The translations under genes and the position numbers were made by a program. From Chloroflexota bacterium (lineage in GTDB: Bacteria; Chloroflexota; UBA11872; VXOZ01), in contig JAPOQA010000060.1 of assembly GCA_026710945.1 (NCBI GenBank), forward strand, positions 1-55,967: a stretch of 55,967 nt of DNA, given 5' to 3'. Shown here piece after piece: positions 39,159-55,337 of this stretch. The notes beneath the pieces were generated by a model, which was given only the letters and a program-made list of their open reading frames with translations, was not told the DNA's origin and ran no database searches. Numbering within the stretch: position 1 is the first letter of the stretch; each line of letters begins with the position of its first letter.

Positions 39159-41813
39159 GTGCCGGTCTACACGCGGAGGCACTGGGGCAAGTTCGACCAG
39201 GGCGAAATACACCTCCTAGAGCACCACCTCGCCGACGTTGGCGCCTGCTTTGAGGCGCTGCTGGCTCAGCATACGATTCGCAAGAGGCTAGCGCGTTCCG
39301 GCGGCTTGGATGACCTAGACGACGTGGCCGTGGCCCGTTTATCCATTCTTGCCGCCTTACACGACATTGGCAAGGCAAACGTTGGCTTTCAGACGCGGGT
39401 CTGGCGTGACTCCGACTTCCCGGAAGGACGACGCAGACCAGGACGCTCCGGTCACTTTAACGAGTTGGTACCCGTGCTCAACGGGGAAGATCGGCGAACG
39501 GCCGCCTGGTTTTTCGACGCCCTTGGCTGGTGGTGGGACGCAACCGAGACTTGGGATGATCGCTGCGGCAAGACGGTCTGTGCCCTGTTCGTCGCTGCAC
39601 TTTCCCATCACGGACGGCCGCTGAAACTGGAAGGTGGATACTCCAGGAACGAGGCTATCTGGCAGCGTCTCGGTGAACTGGAGCCCAAGCAGCTCGTAGA
39701 GCGCATTGGGGTTCTGGTAAAGGATTGGTTCCCCGCCGCCTTCTCCGATGGCGCGCCGCTGCCCGTGGCTCCCGAGTTCCAGCACATGTTCCTAGGCCTA
39801 TGCAACTGGGCCGACTGGATTGGCTCCAATGAGGAGTGGTTTTGTTACCTTGACTCGCGGCAGGACGACTACTTCCTGCACGCTCAACGGCAGGCAGAGG
39901 ATGCAATCCAGGCACTAGGGCTAGATGTTGAACAGCAGAGGGCCAGTTTCCAAGACGTTCCCGATTTCGGCGGACTATTCGAGATTCCAGGCTCACCTGA
40001 ACCCAACGCCATCCAGCGCACGGCCGCCGCAGACACTTTCCTTGAAGAGACGCTGGTCATCATTGAGTCGGAGACAGGCTCCGGCAAAACGGAGGCGGTT
40101 CTGTGGCGGTTCGCCCGAATGTACAAGGCCGGGCTTGTGGACGGCCTCTACTTTGCACTGCCCACGCGGGCCGCGGCAGTCCAGATCCACGACCGCGTCA
40201 AGCGATTTGCCGCCAACCTGTTGCCGGCGCGGCACAGACCGCCCGTCGTGCTGGCCGTGCCCGGCTACGACCCCGGTAAAGACGCCGACTCCATAGGATT
40301 GCCCTCCTACAATCCCTGGTGGGACGACCACCACGGCGCGGAGAAGCCCTGGGCCACCGAGAGCCCCAAGAGGTTCCTCTCCGCCCAGATAGCGGTTGGG
40401 ACGGTTGACCAAGCCATGATGGGGGCGCTTATGGTCAAGAACGCGCACATGAGGGCCGCCTGCCTGTCGCGCAATCTGCTTGTGGTGGACGAGGTTCACG
40501 CCTCCGACACGTACATGAGGGTAGTTCTGGAGGCGCTTCTGGATGCCCACATCGGTGACGGCGGCTACGCCCTGCTCATGTCGGCGACTTTGGGCTCGGC
40601 CGCCCGGCATCGCTGGCTCAATCACGGCAGGCCTCACGCCGGAGAAGGGCCAACTCTTTTAGAAGCGATTGACGCTCCGTATCCCGCCGTCAGCGTCAAG
40701 AGCATGGAGGGAGATAAGTTGGTTGGCACACGGGAGAACGACCAGGATAAACGCGCAAGGGTAGAAACGGCCCCTGAGATGGGAGACTTCCATGCCGTGG
40801 CGCAGCGCGCTCTGGAGGCTGCCCGCAGCGGCGCAAAGGTGCTAGTAATCAGAAACACCGTTGGCTATGCAATAAGGACGCAGCAGGCGTTGGAAGAGCT
40901 CGCAGGGCCGGACAATCAGGACCTGCTGTTTGACGTAGAAGGCTTACCTGCCCTGCATCACGGGCGCTTTGCAACTATAGACCGCCAGCGCTTGGACAAG
41001 CGGGTTGAGAAAGTCCTGGGCAGAAAGGACCGCAGCTCCGGCGGTCGAGTCGTGATTGGTACACAGACGCTGGAGCAGTCCCTGGACATCGACGCGGATC
41101 TGCTCATCAGCGACCTGTGCCCGGTGGACGTGCTGCTGCAGCGCATCGGCCGCCTGCACCGACATCGTCGGGGCGATCGCCCCGACGGGTACGAAACCCC
41201 GGTCTGCGTTGTACTCGCGCCGCCAGACAACGACCTCTCGCCTTTGCTCGGAAGCGGGACGGAGGCCAACGGGCTGGGTCCTTACGGTGGGGTGTACGAA
41301 GATCTGCGAACCCTGGAGGCAACGCTCCGGCTCATAGAGCAGCATTCCGAGTGGCACATACCGGAGATGAACCGCAAGCTGGTGGAGCAAGCCACCCACC
41401 CCGCTGCGCTGGAGGAGATTGTCCAGAAGATGGAGTTGCAGAGCGAAGATTGGCGAGTCCATGCAAATGAAATAGCGGGAGTGGGGATAGCTCAGGGCCA
41501 GACCGCCCAGTTCTCTATAATCAGGCGGGATAAGTCCTTCTTCACCGACAACCGGGACGTGGTCTTCGGCGATATGGAAGAGCGGATACGGACGCGCTTG
41601 GGCGACGACCGCGTCGACATAGTTTTCGACCCGCAGCCAGCCAGCCCATTCGATGCGGCGGCCAGCATCGAAAGGCTGGCGATGTCAGCCCGGTGGCTGG
41701 GAGGAGAGGATATCCCTGAATCGGTGGTACCGGAGCGAACCGACGAAGGGTTCGCCTTTACCATCGGCGACCGCGGCTTCATCTACGACCGGCTGGGCCT
41801 GCGCCGGGTCTAA
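39159..41813 (+). CDS. cas3: CRISPR-associated helicase-nuclease Cas3 (type I-E)
   Basis: A protein of 884 residues from GTG 39159; no convincing ribosome binding site precedes it, so the start may be slightly different. The HD nuclease has HHLADVGA near the N-terminus, then LAALHDIGKANVGFQ (catalytic H-D near 68). The helicase has Walker A ESETGSGKTEAV (about 304), VVDEVHASDT (about 443), SATLGSA, and GTQTLEQSLDID with QRIGRLHRHRR. Cas3 is recruited by Cascade bound to target DNA and degrades it processively. All motifs look intact. Confidence 0.95.
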   Translation: MPVYTRRHWGKFDQGEIHLLEHHLADVGACFEALLAQHTIRKRLARSGGLDDLDDVAVARLSILAALHDIGKANVGFQTRVWRDSDFPEGRRRPGRSGHFNELVPVLNGEDRRTAAWFFDALGWWWDATETWDDRCGKTVCALFVAALSHHGRPLKLEGGYSRNEAIWQRLGELEPKQLVERIGVLVKDWFPAAFSDGAPLPVAPEFQHMFLGLCNWADWIGSNEEWFCYLDSRQDDYFLHAQRQAEDAIQALGLDVEQQRASFQDVPDFGGLFEIPGSPEPNAIQRTAAADTFLEETLVIIESETGSGKTEAVLWRFARMYKAGLVDGLYFALPTRAAAVQIHDRVKRFAANLLPARHRPPVVLAVPGYDPGKDADSIGLPSYNPWWDDHHGAEKPWATESPKRFLSAQIAVGTVDQAMMGALMVKNAHMRAACLSRNLLVVDEVHASDTYMRVVLEALLDAHIGDGGYALLMSATLGSAARHRWLNHGRPHAGEGPTLLEAIDAPYPAVSVKSMEGDKLVGTRENDQDKRARVETAPEMGDFHAVAQRALEAARSGAKVLVIRNTVGYAIRTQQALEELAGPDNQDLLFDVEGLPALHHGRFATIDRQRLDKRVEKVLGRKDRSSGGRVVIGTQTLEQSLDIDADLLISDLCPVDVLLQRIGRLHRHRRGDRPDGYETPVCVVLAPPDNDLSPLLGSGTEANGLGPYGGVYEDLRTLEATLRLIEQHSEWHIPEMNRKLVEQATHPAALEEIVQKMELQSEDWRVHANEIAGVGIAQGQTAQFSIIRRDKSFFTDNRDVVFGDMEERIRTRLGDDRVDIVFDPQPASPFDAAASIERLAMSARWLGGEDIPESVVPERTDEGFAFTIGDRGFIYDRLGLRRV

Positions 41814-41846
41814 GAGCCTGTTTACGATCTGCTTGTCTGGGCGCGC

Positions 41847-41977
41847 AACGTTCGCCCCCGTATCGTGTCGATACGCTGTATCGAGTACGGGGCAGGCTCT
41901 GAGCACTTCGGCAAGCTCAGCACAGGCTTGTCGAAGTGCTCAGAGCTTACCCCGTACGTGATGTGGGGGCGAACGTT
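41847..41977. repeat. Long nested hairpin between cas3 and cas8e
   Basis: Outer arms AACGTTCGCCCCC (41847) and GGGGGCGAACGTT (41965) enclose inner arms GTACGGGG/CCCCGTAC and GCTCTGAGCACTTCG/CGAAGTGCTCAGAGC, the whole spanning 131 bp. It looks like a palindromic insertion element or processing/termination hairpin. The rest of 41814-42121 shows no gene. Confidence 0.7.
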
Positions 41978-42121
41978 TCTCGTGCAGACAAAACGAGTGT
42001 AACCAGGTTCTAACGGCGCGCGGAACCGCTGAGATGCCGCTGGCAAATGCGTTGCTTTGCCGTTATTGCTCGTGTATCGTTCTTTGCATGATCCGATTGA
42101 CTATCGCCTGGAGTCCCTCCG

Positions 42122-43720
42122 ATGTACAACATCCTCACTGAGTCCCTGATACGGGTGGTCAAATCCAACGGCGCTCGAGAAAAGGCGTCCCTGCCCGCAG
42201 TCTACGCCGCGCTCATGACCGACCAAGTAGAGGCGTTCCCCGCCCTGCGCCCCCACCAGCGCCACGCCTGGCACGCCTTCCTGGTCCAGTTGGGCGCTAT
42301 GGCCGTGCACCGGGCAGACCTGAACCAACCGCCGGAGCAAGCCGACGAGTGGCTGCGTATCATAAAGGCCCTTACGAGAGATGAACTCGCGAAGGTTGCT
42401 TACCCGGATGATGACCCGCGGCGGCTGGATGAACCCTGGCAACTGGTCGTAGACGACATCACCAAGCCCGCCTTCATGCAGCCGCCGGCGCGTTCCGAAG
42501 AGCGCTCATCGGACTACAAGAGCGCAGTCGCCACTCCAGATGAGTTGGACATGCTGGTCACGTCCAAGAACCACGATCTGAAATCGGCCGTGGCCGTCCA
42601 GTCCGCCACTGATGACTGGATGTTCGCGCTGATTACTCTACAAACAATGGAGGGATTCAGCGGCGCCGGCAACTATGGTATATCCAGAATGAACGGCGGC
42701 ATGAGCAGCAGGCCTGCCTTCAGCATTACTCAGGACATTCGACTTGGCGCACACGCGAAACGCGATATGAAAGTCCTGCTGGAACGTCGTCAGGAGCCTA
42801 ACGGCCATTGCCTGCTGTGGGCTCTCCCCTGGGATGGCGCTCCGGCGGAGGCGCTGCTTCTGAGCGCCTTGGATCCCCACTACCTCGAGATCTGTCGGCG
42901 TATACGGCTGGGCGTGGACGGCTCAGGAGATCTGAGCGTGGTCAGGACGTCGTCCAAGGCGGCCCGTATAGAGGCCAAGGCCAGCAAGGGCATTACAGGA
43001 GACCCCTGGACGCCCATAGACAGAAAGGATGCCAAGTCGTTGACCCTTGCCAATGGCGGCTTTACCTACAAGAGGACCGTAGAGTATCTATTTGGTGATG
43101 ATTGGGAAATGCCCGAGTTGCTTAGGCCTACAGACGCAGAGGTTCGCTCCCCGGAGACCATGACGCTTGTCGCGAGGGGGATGGTGCGCGGGCAGGGCAA
43201 GACCGAAGGCTACTACGAGCGCATGATTCCCGTCAGGAAGAGGTTTCAATCGGCGATGCTGCGTCAGAGTGGGCAGGACGACATCGGGCAAATTGCCACG
43301 GTCCGCATTGAATATATAAGTGCAGTCCAGCGGATTCTCAGCCACGCCATCCAGGTGTTTCTGGCAGGAGGTGACAGCGATGCTGTAGGCCCTGAGCATC
43401 GCAATCTGGCTCGACCCTGGCTAAATCGCCTGGATGGAATTGTGGATCGCACTTTCTTCGATGACCTCCAGGACGAGTTTGAGGAAGAAGATTCGGAAGA
43501 GCGCGATCGCATGCGCAACCGCTGGCTAATGAACCGCCGGGACGGCGTTGTCGATCACGCCCGCAACATTCTGTCCGCGGCCATCGACTCCCTGCCCTGT
43601 CCGGCGATTCACCGCTTCAAGGCCCGCGCCAACGCCGAGGCGCTGTTCGAGGGGAGAATACGCGGTAACCGGGGCCTGCCCTTCCTGTTCACTGAGAAAG
43701 GAGATGATGATGAAAGCTAA
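42122..43720 (+). CDS. casA: Cascade large subunit Cas8e (Cse1)
   Basis: A protein of 532 residues opening with MYNILTESLIRVV and a conserved Cse1 layout. Its N-terminal domain contains FPALRPHQRHAWHAFLVQLG, and GFSGAGNYGISRMNGGMSSR forms the L1 region contacting the PAM side; a C-terminal four-helix bundle follows. Cas8e recognises the PAM and recruits Cas3. It is followed by cse2, with overlapping starts. Normal length for the family. Confidence 0.93.
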   Translation: MYNILTESLIRVVKSNGAREKASLPAVYAALMTDQVEAFPALRPHQRHAWHAFLVQLGAMAVHRADLNQPPEQADEWLRIIKALTRDELAKVAYPDDDPRRLDEPWQLVVDDITKPAFMQPPARSEERSSDYKSAVATPDELDMLVTSKNHDLKSAVAVQSATDDWMFALITLQTMEGFSGAGNYGISRMNGGMSSRPAFSITQDIRLGAHAKRDMKVLLERRQEPNGHCLLWALPWDGAPAEALLLSALDPHYLEICRRIRLGVDGSGDLSVVRTSSKAARIEAKASKGITGDPWTPIDRKDAKSLTLANGGFTYKRTVEYLFGDDWEMPELLRPTDAEVRSPETMTLVARGMVRGQGKTEGYYERMIPVRKRFQSAMLRQSGQDDIGQIATVRIEYISAVQRILSHAIQVFLAGGDSDAVGPEHRNLARPWLNRLDGIVDRTFFDDLQDEFEEEDSEERDRMRNRWLMNRRDGVVDHARNILSAAIDSLPCPAIHRFKARANAEALFEGRIRGNRGLPFLFTEKGDDDES

Positions 43721-44321
43721 TGCACCGGAAGTTGAGTATCCGGCTGGGCTTCCCCAAGAGCCCGAGCGCAGAAGTTGGGGTGACACCGCCTTTGCCTTAG
43801 CCGGTGAAGTAGCGGGGCGGAGACTCTCGCCGGGCGATCGCGCTGAACTGCGCCGTATGGACCCCGATTCGCCCGGCCCCGCAGTCTACTGGCGGCTGAT
43901 GGCAGAACACGATCTGCTGGGCAACCGGGCCCTGGAAAGGAAGTGGGCGCTCATCCTGCACGGCATCGCTCTGATGACGCCTAGGATCGGCGTGGACGGC
44001 GTTCCGCAGTCTGCCCACAACGGATCCACCCCCGTCGGTCGGGCGCTCTTTCTGGGCGGTGAAGCGCAGAGGGAAAAGGGTTTCTACAGCGAGTCACGGC
44101 TCAACAGGCTGCTGACAGCCCGGGGAGGCATGCTTCGTACCCTGCTGGCCCGCGCGTTTCGCACCCTTGCGTCCGCCGGTGTGTCCTTCAACTGGCGGGA
44201 GATGGCGCAGTTCATACTCAGCGAGGGCTATGACGAAGAGGCGGCAGAGCGGGCGCGCCGACGCATTGCCAGCGAGTATTACCGGGCGGAACGCCGCAGT
44301 GCCCCAGTTTCGGAAAACTGA
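43710..44321 (+). CDS. casB: Cascade small subunit Cse2
   Basis: A protein of 203 residues. Three consecutive ATG codons (43704, 43707, 43710) follow AAAGGAG; I choose 43710 for best spacing. Motifs of Cse2: LSPGDRAELRRMDPDSPG, WALILHGIALMTP, GRALFLGGEAQREKGFYSES, RLNRLLTARGGML. The gene overlaps the end of casA by 11 nt. Cse2 dimers stabilise the R-loop along the Cascade belly. Confidence 0.93.
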   Translation: MKANAPEVEYPAGLPQEPERRSWGDTAFALAGEVAGRRLSPGDRAELRRMDPDSPGPAVYWRLMAEHDLLGNRALERKWALILHGIALMTPRIGVDGVPQSAHNGSTPVGRALFLGGEAQREKGFYSESRLNRLLTARGGMLRTLLARAFRTLASAGVSFNWREMAQFILSEGYDEEAAERARRRIASEYYRAERRSAPVSEN

Positions 44322-44430
44322 ACCGAATACATCGTGGATAGGAAAGGAGAACGGAATTAGTAGATTGAACTCACACCGTGCGGATATGCGAAAGCCCATG
44401 CATACTCGCGCCTGAAGCGGCTCCTCGCTA

Positions 44431-44540
44431 TGTCATCCCTGCGGCTTCGCTCAGGATAAACTCCGCGGCGAAGAATCTAGGGTCAGGACCCCTCTTGAAT
44501 CCGTGTTTTCGACGAAGTCGACGCTGTGCTCAGCATGACA
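44431..44540. mobile_element. MITE-like element inside the cas operon
   Basis: A 110-bp non-coding unit has near-inverted ends (TGTCATCCCTG and CAGCATGACA) and internal GAAGAATCT/GGACCCCTC blocks that recall interspersed TGTCAT repeats of this bacterial group. It lies in the 279-bp gap between cse2 and cas7, genes that are normally adjacent. It carries no transposase. Confidence 0.6.
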
Positions 44541-44600
44541 CGAAGTGAAGCCCCACGAAGCTATCACGTAGAGGTCGTATGATTTCAAAGGAGATTTCAC

Positions 44601-45773
44601 ATGACAACACCAAGGTTCCTACAGATACACGCCCTGCACTCCTACCCGGCGGCGCTGCTGAACCGCGACGATAGCGGTCTGGCCAAGCGCATGCCCTTTG
44701 GCGGCGCGGTGCGTACCCGCATTTCATCCCAGTGCCTCAAGCGTCACTGGCGGGTGGCTGAAGATGAGTACGCCATCCACAATATTCCCGACGCCGCAGC
44801 GGCTATCCGCTCGCGAAACATCGTTGAGCAGAAAGTCATGCAGCCGATACGGGAGGCTGGCGGGATAGCCGAGGACGTGCTGGATGCTGTGAATAGCGCT
44901 TTCAACGTCCATGTTTACGGATCCGGCGGCACATCGGAATCAGGCCGCCAGCCCCTGCTGCTGGGCTTCCCGGAAGTGGGATATCTGCAAGAAAAAGCCG
45001 CCGAGATTTGCGCCGCGCACGCGGACGACGCCGCCGGAGCCAAGGCGTCAGCGGACGCGCTCTTCGGGAAACGGCAGGGAGAGAGCGCGAACTTCCGTGC
45101 TTTTCGCGAGTCGGCCCGACTGCCCGGCGGGCTGGAGGGCGCGCTGTTCGGGCGCATGGTCACGTCCGACCCTGCCGCCAACATCGACGCCGCCGTTCAC
45201 GTGGCCCACGCCTTCACCGTTCACCCGGAGGAGAGCGAGAGCGATTACTTCTCCGTGGTGGACGACCTGCAAACGGAGGACGAGGACCCCGGGGCCGCTC
45301 ACATCGGGGACATGGAGCTTACGGCCGGGCTGTTCTACGGCTACGTGGTGGTTGACGTGCCGGGGCTGATCTCCAACCTGGAGGGTTGCAAGGCGGAGGA
45401 CTGGGAGAGCGCCGACAGGTCGCTGGCCGCTCGGGTGGTCGAGCATCTTGCGCACCTGATCGCCACGGTCTCGCCCGGCGCGAAACGGGGGTCCACCGCG
45501 CCGTACGCGTATGCGGACCTGATGCTGATCGAGGCCGGAAAGCGCCAGCCCCGCAGCTTGGCCAACGCCTTTAGAAAACCGGCCAAGGCGCAGGTAGAGG
45601 ACGCCACCGAAAGGCTATCCTGCCATCTGGAGAAGCTGGACAATGCCTATGGTGCCGCAGAGACCCGCGGGGTGATGTGCCTAGAAGATTGCGAAATCCC
45701 TGGCACGCCGCGCCTTAACCTGGACGCTCTGGCTTCCTGGGCGGCGGAGACGGTTCGCAACGGAGAGGCGTAG
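44601..45773 (+). CDS. casC: Cascade backbone subunit Cas7e (Cse4)
   Basis: A protein of 390 residues with AAAGGAG 8 nt before the ATG. The family mark RFLQIHALHSYPAALLNRDD is followed by LAKRMPFGGAVRTRISSQCL and VDVPGLISNLEGC, all typical of type I-E Cas7. Six copies coat the crRNA. It retains its own strong ribosome binding site after the MITE-like insertion, so translation should persist, though transcription from the upstream promoter may be reduced. Confidence 0.95.
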   Translation: MTTPRFLQIHALHSYPAALLNRDDSGLAKRMPFGGAVRTRISSQCLKRHWRVAEDEYAIHNIPDAAAAIRSRNIVEQKVMQPIREAGGIAEDVLDAVNSAFNVHVYGSGGTSESGRQPLLLGFPEVGYLQEKAAEICAAHADDAAGAKASADALFGKRQGESANFRAFRESARLPGGLEGALFGRMVTSDPAANIDAAVHVAHAFTVHPEESESDYFSVVDDLQTEDEDPGAAHIGDMELTAGLFYGYVVVDVPGLISNLEGCKAEDWESADRSLAARVVEHLAHLIATVSPGAKRGSTAPYAYADLMLIEAGKRQPRSLANAFRKPAKAQVEDATERLSCHLEKLDNAYGAAETRGVMCLEDCEIPGTPRLNLDALASWAAETVRNGEA

Positions 45774-45776
45774 GCC

Positions 45777-46559
45777 ATGCGCCACCTCATACTGCGGCTG
45801 GAAGCGCCGCTCATGGCCTTCGGCGGCGAGACCATCGACAACTACGGCGTCATACGTCGATTCCCGGCGGCGTCCATGCTCACCGGGCTGCTGGCCAACG
45901 CTCTGGGCTGGCGCCGCACCGAGGCGAAACGGCATCAGCGCTTGCAAGACCGACTGGTCTTCGCCGCCCGCATCGACCGGGAACCGGCGGGCGGGGTGCG
46001 CTTGACGGACTTCCAAACTGCTCAACTTGGAGCCTCTGACATGGGATGGACCACACGAGGGCTGCCTGAAGGTCGCGCAGGAGGGGCCAATACCTACAAT
46101 GCTCCCCACCTGCGCTACCGCGACTACTTTGCGGATATGCGCGTTACCGTGGCCCTCAGGCTTGAGCCGGTGGACGAGTCGCTGACGTTGGCCAACGTAG
46201 CAGAAGCGCTCCAGGAGCCGGCGCGGCCGCTCTTCATCGGGCGCAAGCCGTGCCTGCCGTCGCGGCCGCTGTTCGTCGCTTACGCGGACGGAAAAACGGC
46301 GCTGGCCGCGTTGCTGGCATCGCAACCGGAAGAGGACAGTGACAATTCCAACACCCTCGCAGCCATGTGGCCAGCCTACGAGGCAGTGGGCGAGGACGAT
46401 AGGGTGAAGACCGCCCGCCGCTACATGCTCACCGACCAGCGCAACTGGGTATCGGGGCTGCACGGCGGCGGTCGCTGGGTATGCGAGGGCGCCGTCTGCA
46501 ACGCGCGAGCCGGCGCCGTCGGGGAATCCCCGGCATCCACGGCAAGGGAGCAGACATGA
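45777..46559 (+). CDS. casD: Cascade subunit Cas5e
   Basis: A protein of 260 residues 3 nt after casC. The RAMP fold start HLILRLEAPLMAFGGETIDN and the later FPAASMLTGLLANALGW fit Cas5e, as do LTDFQTAQLGASDMGWTTRG and RRYMLTDQRNWVSGLHGGG. Cas5e caps the 5' end of the crRNA. The stop overlaps the next ATG (ATGA). Confidence 0.94.
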   Translation: MRHLILRLEAPLMAFGGETIDNYGVIRRFPAASMLTGLLANALGWRRTEAKRHQRLQDRLVFAARIDREPAGGVRLTDFQTAQLGASDMGWTTRGLPEGRAGGANTYNAPHLRYRDYFADMRVTVALRLEPVDESLTLANVAEALQEPARPLFIGRKPCLPSRPLFVAYADGKTALAALLASQPEEDSDNSNTLAAMWPAYEAVGEDDRVKTARRYMLTDQRNWVSGLHGGGRWVCEGAVCNARAGAVGESPASTAREQT

Positions 46560-47347
46560 CCACAACCACCGGAGCAACTTCCGCAACGGGAGTCCTACAG
46601 ATGGTGCGCGCCCAGATTGACGCGCGAGAGTTTCGTCGCTGGATGGGCAGCAAGCGCCTCCAGGACCCGGATCACGCCATGCACTGCCTGCTGAGCGAGT
46701 GCTTTGGGGAACTGGCGCCCAAGCCCTTCCGCCTGATACTGCCGCGGGATTGTCCCACCGGCGTCCTCTACGGCTACGGCCGCAGCGACGCGGACACGCT
46801 GCGGGAGATGGCCAACGTCTACGCCGACCCCTTGCAGAGCCGCGTCATTCCGGTAGACGAAATGGACAGCAAGGCAATGCCGTCGGCGTGGCGGGTCGGA
46901 CAAAGGCTCGGCTTCGAGGTTCGCGTCCGGCCCGTGGTGCGGAAGCCCAGAGAGGACTCTGAACGTCGTCACAGAGAGATGGATGCTTTTCAAGCCGAGG
47001 CTGAACGGCATCCCAAAGGCAAGATGCCCCGCAGCCGGGAGCAGGTCTACGCGGATTGGTTGGCGGACAAATTCGCCATACTTTTGTCGGAAGAGTCGGG
47101 TGGAAGGCTGCGTCAAGGTCGAAGGCTCGGTGCGAGCCTAGACTTGACCCAGACCACGCTGGTCTCCTTCCAGCGCACGCGGGCCTACCGCAAGGCCGGG
47201 GCCGCCCCATACTCCGAGGGGCCGGACGCCGTCATGCGGGGTGTGCTCACCATAACCGACTCGGAGGCGTTCGCCGCGCTGCTCGCCAAGGGCATCGGTC
47301 GCCATCGGGCCTACGGATTTGGCATGCTCCTGCTGCGTCCGGTTTGA
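46556..47347 (+). CDS. casE: CRISPR RNA endonuclease Cas6e
   Basis: A protein of 263 residues. Early DPDHAMHCLLSECFGE includes the His of the family active site. The C-terminal GIGRHRAYGFGMLLLRP is the glycine-rich loop that binds the repeat hairpin. Cas6e cuts within the array repeats to release crRNAs and stays bound. It is somewhat longer than the E. coli protein, with a charged insert in the middle (PREDSERRHREMDAF). Confidence 0.95.
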   Translation: MTTTTGATSATGVLQMVRAQIDAREFRRWMGSKRLQDPDHAMHCLLSECFGELAPKPFRLILPRDCPTGVLYGYGRSDADTLREMANVYADPLQSRVIPVDEMDSKAMPSAWRVGQRLGFEVRVRPVVRKPREDSERRHREMDAFQAEAERHPKGKMPRSREQVYADWLADKFAILLSEESGGRLRQGRRLGASLDLTQTTLVSFQRTRAYRKAGAAPYSEGPDAVMRGVLTITDSEAFAALLAKGIGRHRAYGFGMLLLRPV

Positions 47348-47427
47348 AGCGCCGTCCGCAGGGCGCGCACTGGCGATTCGCCGCCGCAGCACCTTAACAA
47401 GCAAATACGCAAGCAGCGAGGCAAGAA

Positions 47428-48357
47428 ATGCTGAGAGGCAGACTAGGACTTGAAACCGCGCGGATCCCACATGCGGACCGCCACGGTCTGTTGTGGCTGT
47501 CCCGCGGCGCGCTTACGGTGCGGGACGGCACGTTGCGCTTTCGCCGCGAGATCCCGCCCACCGCCGATAGCTCGCTGGACGCCGGGGAATACGGCATACC
47601 CTTTCAAACCCTTTCCATGATCCTACTGGGGCCGGGCTCCACGGTTAGCCATGACGCCTTGCGCCTCATGGCGCGCCACGGGACGGCCCTGGTGGCAGTG
47701 GGCGAGGACGGCGTCCGGTGTTACACCGCGCCGCCGCTCATGCCCGATACATCCGAGGTGGCCCGCCGCCAGATGCGCGCCTGGGGCGACCCCACCGGCA
47801 GCCGCATAACCATAGCGCGCAAGATGTATGCCCTCCGCCTTGGCGAAGTGCTGCCCCATCAGAACCTTGATGTCCTCAGGGGCATCGAAGGCGCCCGCAT
47901 GAAGCAATCCTACCGAAATCTGGCCCAGCGATACGGCGTGCCGTGGCACGGTCGGCGCTACGACCGGAGCAATCCGCTCTCTGCCGATATACCAAACCAG
48001 GCGATCAATCACGCCTCGGTTGCCGTGACATCGGCGGCTGCTATCGCCGTGATCTCGGTGGGCGCGATTCCGCAGTTGGGCTTCATACACGAGCACAGCG
48101 GCGATGCCTTTGTCCTGGACATCGCCGATCTCTTCCGGGACACAATCCTGCTTCCCGCCGCGCTCAAGTCCGCCAAGGCGGTAATGCAAGACCCCGCGCT
48201 GAACATCGAGAGGCATACCCGCCGTACCACGGGGGAGATGCTGAGGACCGAGAACGTTATTCCCAAGATGATAGACCGCATTAAGGTCCTCTTCGAAGGC
48301 GTAGCACCCATCGAGGCGAAGGCCGAAGCGCCTGGGCAAGGACACCTGGAAGCGTAA
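47428..48357 (+). CDS. cas1: CRISPR adaptation integrase Cas1 (type I-E)
   Basis: A protein of 309 residues. Motifs include SLDAGEYGIPFQTLSMILLG, GIEGARMKQSYRNLAQRYGV (catalytic Glu) and AINHASVAVTSAAAIAVISV. FIHEHSGDAFVLDIADLFRD supplies the catalytic His and Asp. Cas1 integrates prespacers next to the leader in complex with Cas2. It is separated from casE by 80 nt. Confidence 0.95.
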   Translation: MLRGRLGLETARIPHADRHGLLWLSRGALTVRDGTLRFRREIPPTADSSLDAGEYGIPFQTLSMILLGPGSTVSHDALRLMARHGTALVAVGEDGVRCYTAPPLMPDTSEVARRQMRAWGDPTGSRITIARKMYALRLGEVLPHQNLDVLRGIEGARMKQSYRNLAQRYGVPWHGRRYDRSNPLSADIPNQAINHASVAVTSAAAIAVISVGAIPQLGFIHEHSGDAFVLDIADLFRDTILLPAALKSAKAVMQDPALNIERHTRRTTGEMLRTENVIPKMIDRIKVLFEGVAPIEAKAEAPGQGHLEA

Positions 48358-48375
48358 TACTCCAAGGAACTGTGC

Positions 48376-48663
48376 ATGATCGTAATCGTCACGACAAACG
48401 TGGAGGCGCGCTACCGGGGTTTCCTGGCGTCGGCGATGTTGGAAATAGCTCCTGGTGTATATACGTCGCCCAACATGACGAGAGGCATAAGAGAGAGGAT
48501 TTGGGATGTGCTAAGCCGTTGGTACGAGGAGCTTGGGCAGGGCGCAATCGTGATGACCTGGCGAGACCCGTCCGGTGTGGGCAATCAGCAGATCAGGACC
48601 CTGGGCGAGGCGCCCAAGGAGATTGTGGATGCGGATGGCGTCTTCCTGGTGAAATACAGCTAG
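48376..48663 (+). CDS. cas2: CRISPR adaptation protein Cas2e
   Basis: A protein of 95 residues, 18 nt after cas1, with CCAAGGA upstream of the ATG. MIVIVTTNVEARYRGFLASA, EIAPGVYTSPNMTRGIRERI and a short VKYS tail are the type I-E Cas2 signature. It bridges two Cas1 dimers. The array begins about 106 nt downstream, leaving room for a leader. Confidence 0.95.
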   Translation: MIVIVTTNVEARYRGFLASAMLEIAPGVYTSPNMTRGIRERIWDVLSRWYEELGQGAIVMTWRDPSGVGNQQIRTLGEAPKEIVDADGVFLVKYS

Positions 48664-48769
48664 GCAGCAGTCGATATCGTTGGCGCAGCATTGAGCACGC
48701 TGTTCTCTCTGCGATATGAATATGCAAAACCAAGGCTATGAGAGAAGGCGCAGTGATAGGCAATGCAAG
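48664..48769 (+). promoter_or_regulatory. CRISPR leader
   Basis: The 106 bp between cas2 and the first repeat lie at the functional end of the array. The opposite end bears the degenerate repeat, so new spacers should be added here and the precursor RNA transcribed rightward. Confidence 0.6.
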
Positions 48770-51055
48770 GGTTCCCCCGTGCACGCGGGGATAGACCGGT
48801 GTATCGCGGGGGCTGCTATCGCGTGAACTGGGTTCCCCCGTGCACGCGGGGATAGACCCAAGCCTTGTACACCGCGCCAAGTATCGGAATAGGTTCCCCC
48901 GTGCACGCGGGGATAGACCGGTGAGCGCGGCGGCGAAGCGGGCGGGAGTGACGGTTCCCCCGTGCACGCGGGGATAGACCGCGCGTATTACCCTTTTCGT
49001 CTCGCTCGACTGAGGTTCCCCCGTGCACGCGGGGATAGACCCGGGATATCTCCGTCATTTCCTGCACGCGATTCAGGTTCCCCCGTGCACGCGGGGATAG
49101 ACCCTGGTTGTGCCTAATATGACCAGAACGGCACGAGGTTCCCCCGTGCACGCGGGGATAGACCCGGTGCCGCGAGCTGCACGATCCGGCGCGGCTTGGT
49201 TCCCCCGTGCACGCGGGGATAGACCCTGCTGCCGAGACCTCGCGCACGTATAGCTGCGGGTTCCCCCGTGCACGCGGGGATAGACCGCACGGGCGCGGCC
49301 AGTATGAGGTGGATACGCCGGTTCCCCCGTGCACGCGGGGATAGACCGGAGACCAGAGTAATGGCACAGCAAGCGACCGAGGTTCCCCCGTGCACGCGGG
49401 GATAGACCGTATTACGGGGGAGTGATATCGGACGAACGAATGGTTCCCCCGTGCACGCGGGGATAGACCGTTGGGCAGAGGACGGTACGAGGTGGATACG
49501 CCGGTTCCCCCGTGCACGCGGGGATAGACCCTCTTCGCGTGTTTCTGCCATTGTGATGCGCTCGGTTCCCCCGTGCACGCGGGGATAGACCCCAGTTGTG
49601 TAGCTGGAGCTCGCCGTCCTCGTCGGTTCCCCCGTGCACGCGGGGATAGACCACCCGTCGCCGACGTCCTACCCGATAGCATCAGGGTTCCCCCGTGCAC
49701 GCGGGGATAGACCCAATGTCTTTTGCAGAGTACGACCGAGACAAGGGGTTCCCCCGTGCACGCGGGGATAGACCGTGCGGCTCAAGGGATGCGACCGACG
49801 CACACCAGGTTCCCCCGTGCACGCGGGGATAGACCTCTTGTGGAGCTCCTGGTAGCAGATGGCGCAAAGGTTCCCCCGTGCACGCGGGGATAGACCTGCT
49901 GTCGGGTAGCAGGTCGGAGACGGGTTTGAGGTTCCCCCGTGCACGCGGGGATAGACCGCGCATGTTGATGGCAGAAGCGGCGGAGAAGCGGGTTCCCCCG
50001 TGCACGCGGGGATAGACCCGGCATGGTGCTAGGCATGGTGCAACGTGCCGCGGTTCCCCCGTGCACGCGGGGATAGACCCGTGAACTACAGAAAGGACGG
50101 GACAAAAGACATGGTTCCCCCGTGCACGCGGGGATAGACCTATGCTTGAGGATGCCGGCTCCTATGTGTTGATGGTTCCCCCGTGCACGCGGGGATAGAC
50201 CCCGTACAAGCGGCAATGCAGGAAGCGGAGCGCAGGTTCCCCCGTGCACGCGGGGATAGACCCCTATCCGCGTGTTCATCGGACAGAAGCAGCCGGGTTC
50301 CCCCGTGCACGCGGGGATAGACCTTACCGTGTCAACTCCAACTGAGCAATCGGACGGGTTCCCCCGTGCACGCGGGGATAGACCTTCTTGAGGGTCTCCG
50401 TTTCACCAATCGCCCGCGGTTCCCCCGTGCACGCGGGGATAGACCCGCGTTCTTTCGCCGCGAGAGATGCTACCGAACGGTTCCCCCGTGCACGCGGGGA
50501 TAGACCGTTCTGCCTACAGCGGAAGCCCTCGTCGAGCGCGGTTCCCCCGTGCACGCGGGGATAGACCTGCCCGCGTATCTTGACCAGCACTCGACGCACA
50601 GGTTCCCCCGTGCACGCGGGGATAGACCTCGTGGATTCTCTGGGGCGGCACGATGGAGCAGGGTTCCCCCGTGCACGCGGGGATAGACCGTTCAGGTGTG
50701 CCACCTACCGCATCAAACGCATGGTTCCCCCGTGCACGCGGGGATAGACCTGGTCGGCGCTCAGGCGTTCCCGCTTCATGCGGGGTTCCCCCGTGCACGC
50801 GGGGATAGACCGTAAGTGGAGAAGAACTGGCGCTCCATGTTCTGGGTTCCCCCGTGCACGCGGGGATAGACCCTGTATGCGTCGGAGACGTTCTACTGGT
50901 GCCAAGGTTCCCCCGTGCACGCGGGGATAGACCTAGCACGCTCGGCAGCAGGCAAGCGGCAAGGGTGGTTCCCCCGTGCACGCGGGGATAGACCTTGGCT
51001 ACCGACCATAGTTGACGATCTGTTTGTGGTTCCCCCGTGCTCGCCATGAAAGACG
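48770..51055 (+). CRISPR. Type I-E CRISPR array: 37 complete repeats plus one degenerate terminal repeat
   Basis: The 28-bp repeat begins GGTTCCCCCGTGCACG and ends GGGGATAGACC, with an internal CCCCG/CGGGG stem; it matches the pattern of type I-E repeats read in crRNA direction. Repeats recur every 61 bp (one step of 62), first at 48770, last complete at 50967. That gives 37 spacers of about 33 bp. The 38th repeat at 51028 keeps only its first 14 bases or so before diverging. Complete repeats appear essentially invariant. Two spacers (49287-49319 and 49470-49502) are related to each other. Confidence 0.98.
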
Positions 51056-51129
51056 GCACTACACTTACGCATGACGCATCTGCGCAGTTATGCAGATACG
51101 ACGTTATGTGGTTGCGTTGATGCGTAATT

Positions 51130-51649
51130 GTGATACAGTTCTCTCACCAGACGATTGACACGCGCAGGGCTATGAAGGAAGATGGCGATCTGCTGCGCGG
51201 CATCGTTGAGGCTGATGAGACCTATTTGGGTGGCAAGACACGCGGTGACGACCGTGTCATGGGACGCAGTCGCAAGCGCAAGGTAGGTATTGGGTGCCGT
51301 GGAGCGCGGCGGTATGGTCAAGGCTTCACTCTCGCCTCGCATCACCGCCAGGTTCATCAACATGTTCCTACGCAAGAATATCGACCCACGGTCAATTCTC
51401 ATGACCGACCAATGGCCCGGCTACAATGAGGTGCACGACTGGATGCAGCATCTCAGCGTCAGCCACAACAAGACCTACGTGGACGGCATCATCCACACGA
51501 ACACCATTGAGGGTTTCTGGTCACTGGTCAAGCGTGCCATCACCGGCCAGCTTCACCACTACACCATTGAGCACACGCCGGCATACATCAACGAAGCGAC
51601 GTACAAAGACAAATCTTGTGGCGCCTTACCCACCAGACTATGGCAATAA
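51130..51649 (+). pseudogene. IS1595-family transposase relic 1
   Basis: LLRGIVEADETYLGGKTRGD gives the first Asp of the catalytic triad. A frameshift near 51295 moves the frame to GGMVKASLSPRITARFINMF, then ILMTDQWPGYNEVHDWM (second Asp) and HTNTIEGFWSLVKRAITGQL (third position). The N-terminal zinc-ribbon/HTH part is missing, so this is a truncated, frameshifted ISXO2-like transposase. It begins about 75 bp after the last array repeat and could have trimmed the array end. Confidence 0.75.
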
Positions 51650-52271: not shown

Positions 52272-52530
52272 AAAACCTGTTGACCTCGATGGGCTGTTGG
52301 ACACCGAAACCCGACCGACCGATACCGGGATACCACAACGCGGCGCCGAGCCGACCGCTTCAGACAAGCCATCAGCAGCAAAGAAACGAAAAGGCGAGAA
52401 GCGACTCACACTCGCTCTTGACAGCGCAACCTACCGTCAGCTGCGCATGTACGCCGCAGAAACCGACCAAACCCATCAGGCGATTCTTGAAACCGCACTT
52501 GCGGAATACCTCAACCGCGCAACTACGTAA
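52264..52530 (+). CDS. Ribbon-helix-helix partition partner (ParG-like)
   Basis: An 88-residue protein with a polar, probably disordered N-terminus (DGLLDTETRPTDTG) and a C-terminal RHH (RLTLALDSATYRQLRMYAAE, ILETALAEYLNRA). Small proteins of this type follow ParF-like ParA genes and bind centromere repeats. This one appears complete although its ParA is not. A partial copy of its 3' end recurs at 55231. Confidence 0.7.
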   Translation: MPKKPVDLDGLLDTETRPTDTGIPQRGAEPTASDKPSAAKKRKGEKRLTLALDSATYRQLRMYAAETDQTHQAILETALAEYLNRATT

Positions 52531-52552
52531 TCACGTAAAGCAATGTAACCGG
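52531..52552. promoter_or_regulatory. ACGTAA-type iterons beside the partition gene
   Basis: TACGTAATCACGTAAAG follows the RHH gene, and the duplicated copy near 55312-55330 has TTACGTAATAACGTAAAT. Repeated ACGTAA units next to an RHH partition protein could be centromere or operator sites; the stretch is short and the call tentative. Confidence 0.3.
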
Positions 52553-55193: not shown

Positions 55194-55230
55194 CCTGATC
55201 CTCTCGCGGCAGGATGCGCCTATCGCCGCC

Positions 55231-55337
55231 TGGGCATGTACGCCGCAGAAATCGACCAAACACACCAGGCGATCCTCGAAACCGCACTTGCGGAATACCT
55301 CAACCGCGTAATTACGTAATAACGTAAATCAACTTGC
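55231..55337 (+). pseudogene. Relic of the RHH partition gene 3' end
   Basis: The segment encoding MYAAEIDQTHQAILETALAE with YLNRVIT matches the last 30 codons of the gene at 52264 plus about 20 bases downstream, at close to 90% identity. No start is present. It is a duplicated remnant of the partition locus. Confidence 0.8.

What the first reader, a model, noticed from the sequence alone, without database searches (positions are those of the whole stretch)
49287..49502. Two spacers encode the same peptide with synonymous differences
Spacers at 49287-49319 and 49470-49502 agree at 24 of 33 positions. In one frame they read HGRGQYEVDT and LGRGRYEVDT, with most differences in third or synonymous positions (CGC/AGA, GGC/GGA, TAT/TAC). 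They probably come from homologous genes of two related phages or plasmids, recording repeated encounters with one viral family.
Basis: seen in the sequence. Interest (0 to 1): 0.58.

Follow-up and report, generated by a model that had tools for sequence, protein, structure and literature searches.

The report
Related CRISPR spacers from homologous genes
A bacterial CRISPR memory bank holds two pairs of similar but not identical entries, most simply read as records of the same gene taken from related viruses or plasmids, which is an ordinary outcome of this immune system.

Summary
Spacers 9 (49287-49319) and 12 (49470-49502) of a 37-spacer type I-E array agree at 24 of 33 positions. The next best same-strand, same-register pair agrees at 17, and 0 of 2000 shuffles reach 24. 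In one frame they read HGRGQYEVDT and LGRGRYEVDT. The frame continues past the shared 14-nt end (about 1e-4 for that frame). The excess of silent changes is only modest (P 0.03-0.06).

Spacer 15 (49653-49685) and the reverse complement of spacer 19 (49897-49929) agree at 25 of 29 positions and read PVADVLPDS / PVSDLLPDS (0 of 1000 shuffles). No third pair exceeds chance.

A complete cas3-cse1-cse2-cas7-cas5-cas6-cas1-cas2 operon precedes the array.

No protospacer was found in viral contigs, bacterial genomes, phages, plasmids (one spacer), this genome or 400 phylum relatives. The sources and the PAM therefore stay unknown.

Best reading: independent captures of homologous sites from diverged relatives of two mobile-element genes, an ordinary feature of type I-E immunity. 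Paralogues within one element are not excluded.

The parts
39159..41813 (+). cas3 (HD nuclease-helicase)
   Evidence: Pfam Cas3_HD, Cas3-like_C_2; TIGR01587
42122..43720 (+). cas8e / cse1
   Evidence: PF09481; TIGR02547 below its cut-off, 62.1 of 70.05 bits
43548..44321 (+). cse2 (true start probably later than the ORF start, which overlaps cse1)
   Evidence: PF09485 at residues 97-245; TIGR02548
44601..45773 (+). cas7e
   Evidence: PF09344; TIGR01869
45777..46559 (+). cas5e
   Evidence: PF09704; TIGR01868
46481..47347 (+). cas6e
   Evidence: PF08798; TIGR01907
47428..48357 (+). cas1e
   Evidence: TIGR03638, type I-E Cas1e, 278.8 bits
48376..48663 (+). cas2e, 95 aa
   Evidence: TIGR01873 type I-E Cas2e, E 1.6e-29; the ORF first tried, 48372-48719, is another frame and had no hit
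48664..48769 (+). presumed leader between cas2 and the first repeat
   Evidence: position only; leader function inferred
48770..51055 (+). CRISPR array: 37 identical 28-nt repeats, 37 spacers (36 of 33 nt, one of 34), degenerate last repeat 51028-51055
49287..49319 (+). spacer 9, frame +1 HGRGQYEVDT(P)
49470..49502 (+). spacer 12, frame +1 LGRGRYEVDT(P); 24/33 identical to spacer 9
49653..49685 (+). spacer 15, frame +1 PVADVLPDSI
49897..49929 (-). spacer 19; its reverse complement reads KPVSDLLPDS and matches spacer 15 at 25/29

Best explanation
This is an ordinary type I-E CRISPR array. On two occasions it captured a spacer from the same site of a homologous gene carried by diverged relatives of one mobile element, probably phages: spacers 9 and 12 from one gene on the same strand and register, spacers 15 and 19 from a second gene on opposite strands. 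Spacer 12 lies farther from the leader and is presumably older. Its crRNA would differ from the target of spacer 9 at 5 of the first 8 bases (the seed), so it should not have cut the element recorded by spacer 9, and a new spacer was taken. Shown: the array, the cas operon, and homology within both pairs. Inferred: the phage origin, the order of capture, the failure of cross-interference, and the conserved PAM that would explain the identical register of spacers 9 and 12.
For: 24/33 identity at zero offset, 0 of 2000 shuffles. Second pair 25/29, 0 of 1000 shuffles. Exactly two peptide pairs stand clear of shuffled arrays, scoring 45 and 40, next 28, null best 34 in 12 shuffles. The frame continues past the identical block. 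Complete I-E cas set. The shared 3' 14-mer occurs exactly in this genome only in the two spacers, and the pattern search of 41 class genomes hits only this array, so no self or close-relative source is seen. In E. coli type I-E the seed is 8-10 nt and priming is reported to tolerate up to 13 mutations (passages of PMC4782391).
Against: No protospacer in any collection searched (one search gave 9 hits, none in a recognised phage gene). The excess of silent changes is modest for pair 1 (P 0.03-0.06) and absent for pair 2 (P 0.43-0.93). Two sites in one element would look the same.
Confidence: 0.75

Rival explanations
1. Both spacers of a pair come from one mobile element that carries paralogous or internally repeated copies of the gene.
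For: The sequence evidence (homologous coding segments) fits equally; no source genome is known.
Against: Needs two different duplicated genes, or two elements, to give both pairs; related elements that reinfect one host are the commoner situation (general knowledge).
Confidence: 0.15
2. The pair arose inside the array: a spacer was duplicated and then mutated.
For: Exact spacer duplication does happen in a relative's array (L219 spacers 6 and 7 identical).
Against: All 37 full repeats are identical, while the spacers would have gathered 9 changes in 33 nt. Changes in pair 1 respect a reading frame. Spacers 15 and 19 are on opposite strands and shifted by 4 nt, which duplication does not give.
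Confidence: 0.04
3. The similarity is chance.
For: 666 pairs were compared, and 2 of 1000 shuffles reach pair 9/12 when all offsets and strands are allowed.
Against: 0 of 2000 shuffles at zero offset; peptide-level support; a second independent pair.
Confidence: 0.02
4. The shared sequence is a conserved DNA element (a binding site or a mobile-element end) rather than a coding segment.
For: The 14 identical bases of pair 1 are contiguous, and synonymy alone is weak.
Against: Amino-acid similarity extends through the diverged part (1e-4 for that frame); pair 2 behaves the same way with another sequence.
Confidence: 0.04

Closest known systems
Type I-E CRISPR-Cas (E. coli K-12 / Streptomyces avermitilis type)
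   Same: Full cas3-cse1-cse2-cas7-cas5-cas6e-cas1e-cas2e set in order, 28-nt repeat of the I-E kind with 33-nt spacers, array directly after cas2.
   Different: The first spacer base is not fixed (C14 G12 T10 A1). In S. avermitilis and E. coli a fixed G from the AAG PAM would be expected there (inferred from passages of PMC4762764). The PAM of this system is unknown.
Multiple spacers against related viruses in one host (e.g. Sulfolobus islandicus SIRV/SSV spacers)
   Same: Hosts hold imperfectly matching spacers against diverging viruses (passages of PMC6452263).
   Different: There the viruses are known; here neither source is. The evidence here is spacer-to-spacer homology within one array.

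Membership tests
Type I-E CRISPR-Cas | Cas3 plus Cse1, Cse2, Cas7e, Cas5e, Cas6e | tested here: met
   Cse1 passes Pfam's cut-off but not NCBIfam's (62.1 of 70.05 bits)
Type I-E CRISPR-Cas | Cas1e and Cas2e adaptation pair | tested here: met
   TIGR03638, TIGR01873
Type I-E CRISPR-Cas | Adjacent array of near-identical 28-29 nt repeats with 32-33 nt spacers | tested here: met
   37 identical repeats, 36 spacers of 33 nt and one of 34
Type I-E CRISPR-Cas | AAG-type PAM beside protospacers | tested here: inconclusive
   no protospacer found; the overhang of spacer 19 gives AA upstream of the homologue of spacer 15 (sequences), which is a single case
Spacer pair from homologous genes | Similarity beyond chance | tested here: met
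Spacer pair from homologous genes | Conservation in one reading frame | tested here: met
   weaker by the substitution test
Spacer pair from homologous genes | Protospacers identified in two related elements | tested here: inconclusive
   none found; the collections may lack the sources

The most novel reading that the evidence does not exclude
The four spacers record a chase between this host and at least two diverging gene families of one virus lineage, with each re-capture at a conserved site fixed by an in-frame PAM codon. If a 28+1 repeat register is assumed, the codons of spacers 9, 12 and 15 begin at protospacer position 1. The wobble changes at positions 6, 12 and 18 of pair 1 would then fall exactly on bases that Cascade does not read, so that an old crRNA could still prime against a relative. 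The register is assumed, not shown.
Probability: 0.08. Interest if true: 0.45.

Novelty: new member of a known kind. Interest (0 to 1): 0.2.

Why it matters
Homologous spacer pairs let one infer that a host met related elements, and which residues of the target protein are conserved, even when no source virus is in any database. They also give short sequence baits (GRG[QR]YEVDTP, PV[AS]D[VL]LPDS) for finding those viruses later. The biology itself is expected of CRISPR immunity.

Tried and rejected
Phage BLAST hits. For spacers 9 and 12 the hits (E 0.09 to 4) lie in unrelated genes: a PhoH-like protein, hypothetical proteins, and an unannotated gut phage fragment. The spacer frame agrees in 4 of the 5 hits examined, because a match to the same coding bases favours it, but none has more than 25/33 matches, so I take them as chance. 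For spacer 15 the 16 hits are mostly tape-measure or minor tail proteins of actinophages, 15 of 16 on the opposite strand, 20-22 nt long, E 0.3 or worse. For spacer 19 there were 2 hits at E 4. These were not followed further.

RGxY[DE]VD[AST]P and RGRY[DE]VD[AST] gave 2 and 16 stretches. The only pair in long in-frame homologous ORFs is a primase-like phage protein (L203, L204; family name recalled, not searched), with RGRYDVDAP but D-E/D-S instead of x-G before it and at most 23/33 bases shared. I did not accept it.

Pattern PV[AS]D[VL]LPDS in genome contigs: 9 stretches, at or below my rough chance expectation, mixed reading frames, among them a cobaltochelatase-like protein in two Pseudomonas (name recalled); none taken as a source. 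My idea that pair 2 is a ParB-like domain was not supported by any search.

Phylum scan of 400 genomes: pair-1 pattern with 2 mismatches gave 3 matches outside the window's genome against 5 for the reversed control pattern; pair-2 pattern with 1 mismatch gave 4 against 4. These control totals are my reading of the tables. The matches sit mostly in frames that look non-coding. Plasmids were searched with spacer 12 only: 2 Streptomyces records at E 0.3. A third candidate pair, spacers 13 and 20, is at chance level (229 of 1000 shuffles reach it).

Literature: searches listed no paper that I recognised from title or abstract as being on homologous spacer pairs within one array (searches returned 0 papers). 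This is not a claim that none exists; only open-licence papers are held, and I read passages of three.

Full report
What is there. The window is contig C60 of a 3.52-Mb, 70-contig genome. From 39159 to 48663 on the + strand it carries cas3, cse1, cse2, cas7e, cas5e, cas6e, cas1e and cas2e. Cse1 is below NCBIfam's cut-off but above Pfam's. About 106 bases after cas2 begins an array of 37 identical 28-nt repeats (GGTTCCCCCGTGCACGCGGGGATAGACC), with 37 spacers and a degenerate last repeat at 51028. The repeat occurs nowhere else in the genome at up to 3 mismatches. This is a type I-E system with its array read from the cas2 side.

The reported pair. Spacers 9 and 12 agree at 24 of 33 bases in the same register. 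Of 666 spacer pairs the next best agrees at 17, and the best of 2000 shuffled arrays reaches 22. If any offset up to 13 nt and both strands are allowed, 2 of 1000 shuffles reach the pair's score. The frame with the strongest peptide similarity reads HGRGQYEVDT and LGRGRYEVDT. Given the base identity, such peptide conservation in the best of six frames has P 0.03 to 0.06, so 'synonymous differences' is true but modest as evidence. A better test takes the first 19 nt, outside the identical 14-nt end: random spacer starts match the first six codons this well in 1 of 10,000 draws for that frame, while base identity alone (10 of 19) has P 0.016. The pair is therefore homologous over its length and most likely coding.

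A second pair. Comparison over all frames shows exactly two peptide pairs clear of the null: 9/12 (score 45) and 15/19 (score 40), then 28; the best of 12 shuffled arrays was 34. Spacer 15 and the reverse complement of spacer 19 agree at 25 of 29 overlapping bases (0 of 1000 shuffles) and read PVADVLPDS / PVSDLLPDS. They were taken from opposite strands and are offset by 4 nt, so duplication inside the array cannot explain them. Here the substitution test gives no sign of selection for silent change (P 0.43 to 0.93), as only 4 bases differ.

Sources. Pair 1 in its narrow form gave 0 hits in both collections. Relaxed forms gave only sequences that I judge unrelated. BLAST of spacers 9, 12, 15 and 19 against phages, and of spacer 12 against plasmids, gave nothing better than E 0.09; a search of the whole array against phages gave no spacer-level match better than E 0.7. 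The 41 class genomes gave only this array, and 400 phylum genomes gave only chance-level matches. The 22 spacers compared from arrays with similar repeats in two relatives share nothing with this array beyond chance level (two longer gaps between repeats were left out). Protospacers and PAM remain unknown.

How it probably works. New spacers are added at the leader end (general knowledge of CRISPR), so spacer 12 should be older than spacer 9, and 19 older than 15. The nine differences of pair 1 include five of the first eight bases. In E. coli type I-E the seed lies there, and primed adaptation is reported to tolerate up to 13 mutations (passages of PMC4782391). By that rule the old crRNA would not have cut the new relative but might have helped in taking new spacers from it; this is inference from another organism. 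The identical register of 9 and 12 suggests that a PAM is conserved in both homologues. The overhang of spacer 19 shows AA just upstream of the homologue of spacer 15, in keeping with an AAN-type PAM, but this is one case. The reverse reading is less tidy: the homologue of spacer 19 seen in spacer 15 has GA, not AA, at that place (sequences). The first spacer base is not fixed here, and A is nearly absent (1 of 37, P 0.002), unlike the fixed G expected from AAG systems (inferred from passages of PMC4762764).

Verdict. The claim of two related phages is plausible but unproven, since two copies in one element fit as well. Such pairs are an expected product of CRISPR immunity, so interest is low. 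The new facts are the second pair and a quantified null.

Noticed in passing
   Followed up: yes
first base of the 37 spacers, 48798-51027: A is nearly absent at spacer base 1 (1 of 37, P 0.002); this may reflect the PAM or the prespacer-trimming rule of this system.
   Followed up: partly
51028-51649: The array ends in a degenerate repeat, followed within about 260 nt by an ORF with an ISXO2/IS1595-like transposase domain; the sequence looks like an element remnant beside the array.
   Followed up: no
L219 spacers 6 and 7: A relative's I-E array (G009) holds an exactly duplicated spacer.
   Followed up: no
GQ919031.1, 83938-83962: Streptomyces phage ZL12 holds a stretch of about 25 nt matching this CRISPR repeat outside any annotated gene; not examined further.
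   Followed up: no
52430-52543 and 55219-55332: Two 114-nt direct repeats, 88% identical, downstream of the array.
   Followed up: no
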